Positions 13,308 to 17,818 of a stretch of 28,602 nt of DNA are shown piece by piece (position 1 is the first letter of the stretch; the number at the start of each line of letters is the position of its first letter). Source of the stretch: a virus; IMG/VR virus record IMGVR_UViG_3300006802_000399, positions 1 through 28,602 of that record. The stretch is one strand, 5' to 3'. Both the position numbers and the translations under genes were made by a program. Below the pieces are notes generated by a model. The model was not told the origin of the DNA. It worked only from the letters and a program-made list of their open reading frames with translations, and made no database searches.

Positions 13308-14099
13308 ATGATCACGGGCGCAATGGTGCGCGGCACATTGCGTCGCCTCCGGTCGGACAAGCATCGCCTCCTAACGCAGGATGAGGAACAACTGCTTGCC
13401 CGCGCCTATCATGCCGGGATAGAGCGGCAGGAGTGCCTGGATATGCTCGTGTGGCGCAACCTCGGGCTCGCCAAGCACGTCGCCATGACCTACGCCAGGC
13501 CGGAGCACATCGACGATGCGCTCGCCGCGGCGATCCGCGGGCTGATTCGCGCGGTCGAGGGATTCGATCCCGACCGCGGGCTCAAATTTGCCACGTACGC
13601 TATGTATTGGTGCCGTCAATGCGCGAGGCGTTACGTCTCCTCGCATCAGGAGACGATCAGGGTACCGGAGTACATGGTGTACAAGACGCACAAGGTCCGC
13701 AGGGCTTGGGCGACACTTTGTCAGGCCAACGGCACACCGCCAAGCATGGCCGACATGGAGACGTACACGGGCCTCGATGCGGAGACGATCGCCCTCGCTA
13801 GGCGCACGATGCGGCTTGAGCCCAAGAGCCTCGATGATCCCGAGGATACATCGATCGCGCAAGCGCTCACGGAATCCGCGGAGGATATCTCCCAGCGCCT
13901 ACACGAGCACGACGACCTGCACGAGGCTCTGATGCAATTGGATGGCGATGCAAGGTCCATCCTGATCAGGCACTTTGGCCTGGACGGCCGGACCCCAGAG
14001 ACACTCCAGTCGATCGCAATGACCTATGGCGTCACGAGGCAACGCATCGAGCAACGGGTCGCAAGCGCCTGCAAAAAACTGCACAAGATTTTGGCCTGA
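13308..14099 (+). CDS. Phage-encoded RNA polymerase sigma-70 family factor
   Basis: 263 residues. Region 2 spans ~47-115 (NLGLAKHVAMTYA..., AAAIRGLIRAVEGFDPDRGLKFATYAMYWCRQCARRYV), region 3 ~120-165 (VYKTHKVRRAWATL), and region 4 ~203-262 (ARSILIRHFGLDGRTPETLQSIA, VTRQRIEQRVASACKKL). It would direct host RNA polymerase to phage promoters. The conserved TGTGGGATACT promoters of the head genes are candidate targets (inference). A second in-frame ATG at 13323 is a possible alternative start. It lies at the end of the tail/lysis run, just before the early promoter region. Confidence 0.88.
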   Translation: MITGAMVRGTLRRLRSDKHRLLTQDEEQLLARAYHAGIERQECLDMLVWRNLGLAKHVAMTYARPEHIDDALAAAIRGLIRAVEGFDPDRGLKFATYAMYWCRQCARRYVSSHQETIRVPEYMVYKTHKVRRAWATLCQANGTPPSMADMETYTGLDAETIALARRTMRLEPKSLDDPEDTSIAQALTESAEDISQRLHEHDDLHEALMQLDGDARSILIRHFGLDGRTPETLQSIAMTYGVTRQRIEQRVASACKKLHKILA

Positions 14100-14131: not shown

Positions 14132-14162
14132 GTGCATCGGGATTACCGATAGGAGAAACAAG

Positions 14163-14453
14163 ATGCAAACGACGACGATAAATCAATTGGCGACGATGAT
14201 CCACGAGTACAAGGCGGTGGATCGCAAACTGCAACAAGCCTATCGCAAGCGGGACACCTACGGATACGACGAGTATCTGGAGGAGGCACTTAGTGCGCGG
14301 TCCGAGGAACTTTTTAATTCGATTCGCGAGGCCGTTCCCGGTCAATCTTGGGATCAGGTTTCCGCGATGATCGACGCGTGGGAGATCAAGCCTCAAGCCA
14401 TCGTGGTGCCCGCCGTAGACGACGAAGATTTCTCAGACCCATTTGCTGAATAA
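14163..14453 (+). CDS. Small acidic helical protein, unknown function
   Basis: 96 residues, AGGAG site 7 nt before the ATG. The N-terminal two thirds is predicted helical (TINQLATMIHEYKAVDRKLQQAYRKRD...). The C-terminus is very acidic and ends DDEDFSDPFAE, similar to the EADTEEIADPFA end of RecT in this window. I do not recognise a family. As first gene after the early promoter, it is probably expressed soon after infection. Confidence 0.7.
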   Translation: MQTTTINQLATMIHEYKAVDRKLQQAYRKRDTYGYDEYLEEALSARSEELFNSIREAVPGQSWDQVSAMIDAWEIKPQAIVVPAVDDEDFSDPFAE

Positions 14454-14457
14454 CCCA

Positions 14458-14477
14458 AGGCCCGGACAACCGGGCCT
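14458..14477 (+). other. RNA hairpin abutting the hammerhead ribozyme
   Basis: An 8-bp perfect stem (14458-14465 with 14470-14477) with an ACAA loop, starting 4 bases after the stop codon of the preceding gene. There is no T-run, so it is not a standard terminator. Its last base, T14477, is also the outer base of ribozyme stem III, so the two helices could stack. After ribozyme cleavage it would sit 5 nt from the 3' end of the upstream mRNA and could protect it. Confidence 0.6.
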
Positions 14478-14524
14478 CCGTCCACCGGTAGGCCGGTGCT
14501 GATGAGCCCAGAGGGCGAAACGGA
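14477..14524 (+). ncRNA. Type III hammerhead self-cleaving ribozyme
   Basis: All conserved hammerhead elements are present in order. Stem III 5' arm is TCCG (14477-14480), followed by TC, with cleavage expected after C14482. Stem I is CACCGG with CCGGTG (14483-14488 and 14493-14498, loop TAGG). Then comes CTGATGA (14499-14505). Stem II is GCCC with GGGC (14506-14509 and 14513-14516, loop AGA). Then GAAA (14517-14520) and stem III 3' arm CGGA (14521-14524). Stems I and II are closed and stem III is open, which is the type III permutation. It lies in the leader of the gene at 14541, 16 nt before its ATG. Confidence 0.88.
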
Positions 14525-14540
14525 ACCAAGGAGAACCAAG

Positions 14541-14930
14541 ATGCAAACGATTATGGCGGGAAATTTGCCAGCGATGCCCGCGATCAAGTGGAGCCGGGAT
14601 GGATGGCAGACCCAAGAGGAATCGACCTACAGGACGTTCGTCGAGATCGATTGGCGCAAGGGTACGATCGAGGTCTACAAGCTCGGATGCGATGAGCGAT
14701 GGTTCGTCCCGACTCGTTTCACCAACAACCACGCCGCTCGTATGATGGTTGCGCCTGGAACACCCAAGGTCGAGATCGTCAACATTCTCGAAATCTACTG
14801 GGATCAAATCTCGGAGATCATGGCATCCTACGAGCAAGGTATTCACGTTTCGCAACCTGCTCAATTCGGCGAAGCGTCCGAGCTCTTGCGGTTCGCGGTG
14901 CGAGGAATCGCATGGGCCTTGGAAGCCTGA
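14541..14930 (+). CDS. Unknown protein behind hammerhead ribozyme
   Basis: 129 residues. I start at the ATG at 14541 because AGGAG lies 7 nt upstream and the surrounding sequence copies the initiation region of the gene at 14163. The upstream in-frame ATG at 14496 lies inside the ribozyme and is rejected. The sequence has a beta segment (YRTFVEIDWRKGTIEVYKLG) and a helical C-terminus (SELLRFAVRGIAWALEA). No family is recognised. Ribozyme cleavage would leave its mRNA with a 58-nt leader and a 5'-hydroxyl end. Confidence 0.72.
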   Translation: MQTIMAGNLPAMPAIKWSRDGWQTQEESTYRTFVEIDWRKGTIEVYKLGCDERWFVPTRFTNNHAARMMVAPGTPKVEIVNILEIYWDQISEIMASYEQGIHVSQPAQFGEASELLRFAVRGIAWALEA

Positions 14931-14939
14931 CAAAAAGAC

Positions 14940-14965
14940 GGCCCGGCTGGACAACCAGCCGGGCC
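14940..14965 (+). other. Intergenic RNA hairpin
   Basis: An 11-bp perfect stem (14940-14950 with 14955-14965) with the same ACAA loop and flanking GG/CC as the hairpin at 14458. Only TTGT follows, and a ribosome binding site starts 5 bases later. It is therefore more likely a processing or stabilising element, or a weak terminator, than a strong terminator. Confidence 0.6.
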
Positions 14966-14981
14966 TTGTAGGAGAAATATG

Positions 14982-15161
14982 ATGCAAAGAAATCGTATCA
15001 CGCGGAAGCCGGTCGGCGAGAGGCCGATCGACGTCATCTCGATTATCCTGCTCGGGATGGCCTTTGGATGGTGGGCATTGCAGGGATTTGCCGAACGCCG
15101 GGAGCTCGAGGCCGAGCAACGCGCCGCGATCATTCGCGCGGAGGGAGGGATGACCCAATGA
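14982..15161 (+). CDS. Small single-pass membrane protein
   Basis: 59 residues from ATG 14982, which has AGGAG 7 nt upstream exactly as in the two preceding genes. The ATG at 14979 is only 4 nt from that site. A basic N-terminus (RNRITRKPVGERP) is followed by one hydrophobic segment (VISIILLGMAFGWWALQGFA) and a charged helical tail. Function unknown. The stop overlaps the next start. Confidence 0.6.
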   Translation: MQRNRITRKPVGERPIDVISIILLGMAFGWWALQGFAERRELEAEQRAAIIRAEGGMTQ

Positions 15162-17787: not shown

Positions 17788-17818
17788 ATTGGGCCCAGGC
17801 AAATCGCCTGGGCCCAAT
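17788..17818 (+). terminator. Strong hairpin after recT
   Basis: A perfect 13-bp stem (17788-17800 with 17806-17818) with loop AAATC, 7 bases after the recT stop. It lacks a T-run, so it may act as attenuator, RNA-stability element or partial terminator between recT and the initiator gene. Confidence 0.55.

What the first reader, a model, noticed from the sequence alone, without database searches (positions are those of the whole stretch)
14477..14524. Complete type III hammerhead ribozyme in a phage early operon
Seen: every conserved core element (TC before the cleavage site, CTGATGA, GAAA) and three perfect helices of 4, 6 and 4 bp in the right order. Known: hammerhead ribozymes cleave themselves after NUH and have been reported in some phage genomes. 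Inference: here it separates the first two early genes, leaving the upstream mRNA capped by an 8-bp hairpin 5 nt from its 3' end and the downstream mRNA with a 58-nt, 5'-OH leader. This could set unequal stability for the two genes. A clear ribozyme so close to a Shine-Dalgarno site could also control initiation.
Basis: partly seen in the sequence, partly recalled or inferred. Interest (0 to 1): 0.9.

Follow-up and report, generated by a model that had tools for sequence, protein, structure and literature searches.

The report
Self-cutting RNA between phage genes
Between two neighbouring genes of an uncultured bacterial virus lies a textbook self-cutting RNA (a hammerhead ribozyme) with a small hairpin directly in front of it; a survey of several hundred phage hammerheads suggests these elements cut long phage messages into pieces whose cut upper end is always closed by a hairpin, which gives a testable answer to what they are for.

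Summary
Window 14478-14523 (+) holds a canonical type III hammerhead: every core nucleotide, helices of 4 (5), 6 and 4 bp, predicted cut between C14482 and C14483. Rfam's type III model matches full length (37.1 bits, below its cut-off of 48.5, which other clear phage hammerheads also miss); a model built from 24 other phage hammerheads scores 51.9 bits (E about 1e-16). Four other contigs carry it before the same gene although the gene upstream differs between arrangements; a close relative without that gene lacks the ribozyme. Cleavage itself is untested. Hammerheads cutting phage transcripts between genes were proposed in 2011, so this is a new member of a known kind. What I add is a rule I did not find described. 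Type III hammerheads leave the upstream RNA without a terminal hairpin, and 78 of 142 dereplicated phage examples (113 by a looser test) have a separate hairpin abutting their 5' side, as here, against 4 of 80 type I and 6 of 108 type II, whose own closed stem III does that job. The likeliest function is a processing site giving the upstream mRNA a hairpin-capped 3' end and the downstream mRNA a uniform 5'-OH leader. Control of initiation has no support.

The parts
14163..14453 (+). gene A, 96 aa, no family match; upstream cistron
   Evidence: ORF list, no PHROG or Pfam match; replaced by unrelated genes in relatives
14458..14477 (+). 8-bp hairpin abutting stem III; predicted to cap the 3' end of the upstream cleavage product
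   Evidence: pairing kept while the sequence differs in relatives L126 and L128; general in type III
14478..14523 (+). type III hammerhead ribozyme (14477-14524 with one more pair)
14482..14483 (+). predicted cleavage site, after H17 = C14482
   Evidence: position of U16.1 (T14481) and H17 in the hammerhead core, read; cleavage not tested
14483..14498 (+). stem-loop I, which becomes the 5'-OH terminal hairpin of the downstream mRNA
   Evidence: covarying in the wider family
14499..14520 (+). catalytic core CTGATGA (14499-14505), stem-loop II (14506-14516) and GAAA (14517-14520)
14528..14533 (+). Shine-Dalgarno AAGGAG of gene B, outside the ribozyme helices
14541..14930 (+). gene B, 129 aa, unknown function; travels with the ribozyme in relatives
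   Evidence: AlphaFold model uninformative (pLDDT 48.5)
14940..14965 (+). 11-bp hairpin between genes B and C, no ribozyme
14979..15161 (+). gene C, 60 aa, moves with B in relatives

Best explanation
A self-cleaving intercistronic processing site made of two joined parts, a hairpin and a type III hammerhead. A transcript covering genes A and B folds the hammerhead and cuts itself between C14482 and C14483. The A message then ends in an 8-bp hairpin with a 5-nt tail and (by hammerhead chemistry) a 2',3'-cyclic phosphate, an end that 3' exonucleases should find hard to attack. The B message starts with a 5'-OH, stem-loop I at its very first base and a fixed 58-nt leader, independent of whichever gene lies upstream. 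Shown here: the structure, its conservation, its linkage to gene B in this phage group, and the rule that phage hammerheads leave a hairpin at the upstream 3' end. Inferred: cleavage in the cell and protection of the ends.
For: Complete core and helices. Wider family of 24 phage type III hammerheads: 99.7% of cells paired, 102 two-sided changes versus 28 in shuffles (stems I and III were used in choosing these sequences and stem II in the search pattern, so part of this is by construction, though 140 of 143 raw core matches folded as type I or III). HHR plus leader 63/63 and 62/63 identical in L126 and L128 while gene B is 90-91% identical. Hairpin within 3 nt of the ribozyme: type III 78/142 and 20/34, type I 4/80, type II 6/108; Fisher 2e-15 (III vs I) and 7e-18 (III vs II). 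Looser test: 113/142 and 30/34, versus 17/80 and 27/108. Stop-to-ribozyme distance: median 32 nt in type III, 0 in type I, 2 in type II; ribozyme to next ATG 22-24 nt in all three. Stem III, the hairpin that ends the upstream product in types I and II, has GNRA or UNCG loops in 47/91 and 48/108. Literature: tandem prophage hammerheads cut during in vitro transcription, one set also cut in E. coli, and a halovirus hammerhead cleavage site lies within 3 nt of a mapped 5' end (PMC3088659).
Against: No transcript data; cleavage of this sequence is untested. Loops I (UAGG) and II (AGA) are short, with no obvious Watson-Crick kissing contact, so it could be slow. Nearest-neighbour folding ranks the hammerhead fold slightly below the best fold (about 13-16% of the ensemble with the hairpin present), although such models ignore tertiary contacts. 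In some other phage families the ribozyme is shared with the upstream rather than the downstream gene. Close relative L129 does without it. 29 of 142 type III examples lack even a hairpin by the looser test.
Confidence: 0.7

Rival explanations
1. Mainly a 5' insulator for gene B, a natural counterpart of the synthetic part RiboJ: cutting removes whatever upstream sequence a mosaic genome has placed there, so that B always has the same structured 5' end and stable mRNA. The hairpin would be secondary.
For: In this phage group the ribozyme is inherited with B across three different upstream genes and two genome positions. RiboJ, built from the sTRSV hammerhead, standardises 5' ends and raises mRNA about twofold (PMC6206723).
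Against: Does not explain why type III, and not types I or II, carries an extra hairpin on the upstream side; type I hammerheads leave no 5' hairpin on the downstream RNA; other families link the ribozyme to the upstream gene.
Confidence: 0.2
2. The abutting hairpin serves the ribozyme itself: it stacks on the short open stem III or keeps neighbouring sequence from misfolding the core.
For: In this window and its relatives, leaving only the last bases of the hairpin lowers the predicted share of the hammerhead fold from 0.11-0.16 to 0.0001-0.0015.
Against: Removing the hairpin altogether costs little (0.07). Over 142 type III ribozymes, 45 nt of upstream sequence does not help predicted folding compared with 10 nt (median difference -0.5 kcal/mol, against the idea). 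The type II set also has a short open helix yet no abutting hairpin. Coaxial stacking was not modelled.
Confidence: 0.15
3. A control element: cleavage or refolding of the ribozyme switches translation of B on or off.
For: Stem III ends 4 nt before the Shine-Dalgarno, so a ribosome and an uncut ribozyme could compete for space (sequence).
Against: Shine-Dalgarno accessibility is predicted similar or slightly lower after cleavage; no ligand-like extension; loops are minimal.
Confidence: 0.07
4. A degenerate, inactive relic carried along with gene B.
For: Below Rfam's gathering score; one close relative lacks it.
Against: Not one mismatch in 63 nt against L126, where gene B differs at 37 of 381 sites, 26 of them third positions; the hairpin keeps pairing while its sequence changes.
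Confidence: 0.05

Closest known systems
Type III hammerhead ribozyme (Rfam RF00008; Perreault et al. 2011, PMC3088659)
   Same: All invariant core nucleotides, helix order, closing pairs and topology; intergenic, same strand as the genes, close to the next start codon; hammerheads flanking phage or prophage genes and cutting polycistronic RNA were reported there
   Different: Scores under Rfam's gathering cut-off; loops I and II shorter than usual; carries an abutting 5' hairpin, which I did not find mentioned in that paper
HHphage hammerhead of haloviruses HF1/HF2 (PMC3088659)
   Same: Hammerhead just upstream of the first gene of an early transcript; mapped 5' end within 3 nt of the cleavage site
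   Different: Variant hammerhead in an archaeal virus; here the core is canonical and a gene precedes the ribozyme
RiboJ insulator (synthetic, sTRSV hammerhead plus hairpin; PMC6206723)
   Same: Self-cleaving leader that gives the gene a fixed 5' end
   Different: RiboJ's added hairpin is downstream of the ribozyme; here it is upstream, on the other cleavage product
RNase III processing sites of T7-like phage early mRNA (own knowledge)
   Same: Cuts a polycistronic phage transcript between genes and leaves structured ends
   Different: RNA catalyst in cis, no host enzyme, 5'-OH and cyclic-phosphate ends

Membership tests
Hammerhead ribozyme, type III | Core C3 U4 G5 A6 N7 G8 A9, G12 A13 A14, A15.1-U16.1, H17 | tested here: met
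   All present at 14499-14505, 14517-14520, 14481-14482
Hammerhead ribozyme, type III | Three helices with paired closing positions 1.1-2.1, 10.1-11.1, 15.1-16.1 | tested here: met
   C14483-G14498, G14506-C14516, A14520-U14481; helices of 6, 4, 4(5) bp without mismatch
Hammerhead ribozyme, type III | Stem III open, stems I and II closed by loops | tested here: met
   Order III-I-core-II-III
Hammerhead ribozyme, type III | Significant full-length match to a hammerhead covariance model | tested here: met
   RF00008 positions 1-54, 37.1 bits, E 7.2e-7 in 201 bases; own model R1 built without this sequence 51.9 bits
Hammerhead ribozyme, type III | Rfam inclusion score of 48.5 bits (a database cut-off, not a biochemical criterion) | tested here: not met
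   37.1 bits. Loci with complete phage hammerheads also miss it: none reach it in 7 loci, 3 of 12 reach it
Hammerhead ribozyme, type III | Covariation of the helices among homologues | tested here: met
   Wider family: all six stem I pairs, two stem III pairs and one stem II pair change on both sides, partly by choice of sequences; close relatives are identical and so uninformative
Hammerhead ribozyme, type III | Mg2+-dependent self-cleavage 3' of H17, lost on core mutation | not testable with these tools
   Needs in vitro transcription
Hammerhead ribozyme, type III | Loop I-loop II tertiary contact for fast cleavage | tested here: inconclusive
   Loops UAGG and AGA have no Watson-Crick pairing by eye; non-canonical contact cannot be judged
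RiboJ-like 5' insulator | Makes downstream expression independent of upstream sequence | not testable with these tools
   Only the genetic pattern that would call for it was seen

The most novel reading that the evidence does not exclude
Phage hammerheads of all three topologies are one functional class of 'ribozyme terminators': RNA-catalysed 3'-end makers that always leave a hairpin at or within a few bases of the upstream 3' end. Where the topology does not supply the hairpin (type III), a separate one is added next to stem III. The window element is a complete example, moving as a cassette with its downstream gene.
Probability: 0.55. Interest if true: 0.7.

Novelty: new member of a known kind. 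Interest (0 to 1): 0.55.

Why it matters
The role of the many hammerheads in phage genomes was left open when they were described in 2011. The cross-topology rule found here (a hairpin at the upstream cut end in types I, II and III, supplied by different parts) points to 3'-end formation and predicts what to measure: half-lives and 3' ends of the upstream product. If right, phages use an RNA catalyst, independent of host enzymes, to divide operons into separately stable messages, and the hairpin plus hammerhead unit would be a compact part for building operons.

Tried and rejected
Hairpin as a general folding aid for the ribozyme: true only for a half-deleted hairpin in this family, not for 142 others. 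Shine-Dalgarno sequestration: none. Hammerhead always inherited with the downstream gene: holds here, not in other families. Spacer to keep terminating ribosomes off the ribozyme: types I and II start at the stop codon. Upstream hairpin as intrinsic terminator: no T-run follows, and it was not among the terminator-like sites. Plain folding of the 63-nt piece did not show the hammerhead; that piece started inside the hairpin. Named phages with similar DNA around it: none; no named phage in the collection has gene B. Structure of gene B: model too poor to use. The other weak Rfam matches here (L17 leader, asX2, sR39) are far below their cut-offs and taken as chance.

Full report
What was checked. 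The window is a 28.6-kb IMG/VR virus record of a tailed phage: metallophosphoesterase (11830), endolysin (12771), sigma-70-like factor (13308-14099), then small genes A (14163-14453), B (14541-14930), C (14979-15161), nuclease, RecT, replication initiator, terminase, portal and head genes, all on +.

Is it real? Rfam's type III model matches end to end at 37.1 bits, E 7e-7 in 201 bases, under its gathering score of 48.5. That cut-off is strict for phage examples: of 19 loci scanned, among them several with complete hammerheads, only three reached it. A model built from 24 other viral type III hammerheads, none from this phage group, scores the window 51.9 bits, E 1.7e-16 in 75.5 kb, with nothing else in the window. 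A strict core pattern in viral contigs gave 143 parsed matches, of which 140 had the remaining helices of a type I or III hammerhead. Hammerheads are therefore common in phages, and this is one.

Relatives. Four other contigs carry gene B (90-92% protein identity) and the ribozyme. Ribozyme plus leader are identical at 63/63 and 62/63 positions, while gene B differs at 37 of 381 and 36 of 387 positions, mostly third codon positions. The gene upstream is unrelated in each of three arrangements, and the A-B-C cluster sits after the sigma gene in the window but between terminase and portal genes in L126 and L128. The hairpin before the ribozyme is present in all, with different but still paired sequence. 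L129, 86-91% identical to the window on both sides, has other genes in place of A and B and no ribozyme; only the leader GGAACCAAGGAGAANCAAGATGCAAACGA remains. So here the ribozyme goes with gene B. That is not a general law: in other families it is shared with the upstream side.

The hairpin rule. In type III the cut lies near the 5' edge, so the upstream product keeps only one strand of stem III; in types I and II the closed stem III stays at its 3' end. If the purpose is a protected upstream 3' end, type III should carry an extra hairpin and types I and II should not. Dereplicated counts of a hairpin of at least 6 bp ending within 3 nt of the ribozyme: type III 20/34 (first scan) and 78/142 (independent scans), control windows 0 and 3-4; type I 4/80 (controls 1-4); type II 6/108 (controls 1-5). 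The prediction for type II was noted before the type II matches were analysed. A folding-based looser test gives 113/142 against 17/80 and 27/108. In bacterial genomes the same holds: type III 25/55, type I 0/19. The stop codon of the upstream gene lies 32 nt (median) before type III ribozymes, leaving room for the hairpin, and 0 and 2 nt before types I and II; the next ATG follows at 22-24 nt in all. The hairpin most often ends 0-1 nt from the 4-bp stem III, so the product's tail after the hairpin is about 5-6 nt, as in the window. Stem III loops of types I and II are GNRA or UNCG in about half the cases, whereas stem I loops of type III almost never are (1 of 142).

How it most likely works. 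Shown: structure, conservation, linkage, rule. Inferred: the A-B transcript cuts itself at 14482/14483; A's message ends in hairpin plus 5 nt; B's message begins with 5'-OH and stem-loop I. From general knowledge, 3' exonucleases need a longer single-stranded tail than 5 nt to start on a stable hairpin, and 5'-OH ends are not substrates for the pyrophosphohydrolase/RNase E 5'-end pathway; both ends should then be slow to decay. The Shine-Dalgarno is outside the helices and is not predicted to be freed by cleavage, so the initiation-control idea has no support.

What is known. Perreault et al. 2011 reported hammerheads of all types in phages and prophages, often flanking genes, proposed that they cut phage transcripts into operon- or gene-length mRNAs, showed cleavage in vitro and, for one triple set, in E. 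coli, and noted a halovirus ribozyme at a mapped 5' end (PMC3088659). I searched that paper for hairpins, terminators and stem-loops next to the ribozyme and found none mentioned, and found no other paper on it in the held library; subscription papers were not searchable. Hence: the ribozyme is a new member of a known kind; the hairpin rule may be new.

Noticed in passing
L130-L209 (genome contigs): About half of the first 80 bacterial-genome hammerhead loci listed are from Candidate Phyla Radiation (Patescibacteria) genomes, mostly with a short stem II; a text search found no paper naming both hammerhead ribozymes and Patescibacteria.
   Followed up: partly
L133, L144, L160, L164, L169, L179, L188, L219, L221, L230, L247 and others, a few to about 35 nt after the ribozyme: A boxA-like motif GTTCTTTNAA (known from transcription antitermination) follows 18 of 64 type III hammerheads in bacterial genomes and none of the viral ones; an Rfam scan of 12 such loci found tRNAs in three but no rRNA.
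   Followed up: partly
L471 about 979-1034 (Streptomyces phage Rooney) and L472 about 995-1050 (Cellulophaga phage phi18:3): Cultivated phages with unannotated hammerheads: a type II right after a stop codon and overlapping the next Shine-Dalgarno, and a type I with core CTGAAGA about 1 kb upstream of an ardA gene.
   Followed up: partly
L092, L066, L548, L058, L073, L312: Three to five hammerheads at successive sites of one phage contig, as if a whole operon were divided.
   Followed up: no
types I and II generally: The upstream gene's stop codon lies at or inside the ribozyme's first bases, so translation of the upstream gene could delay cleavage.
   Followed up: no
window 14152-14165, 14530-14543, 14971-14984: The starts of genes A, B and C share the leader GGAGAANNAAGATG, also kept in relatives whose genes differ; a possible recombination joint.
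   Followed up: partly
L126 about 255-305; L128 about 13380-13425 (reverse strand): An 11-bp inverted repeat GCCACACATAT...ATATGTGTGGC with paired changes between relatives lies before gene A and looks like an operator over a promoter.
   Followed up: no
window 17788-17818: A perfect 13-bp hairpin ATTGGGCCCAGGC..GCCTGGGCCCAAT just after the RecT gene.
   Followed up: no
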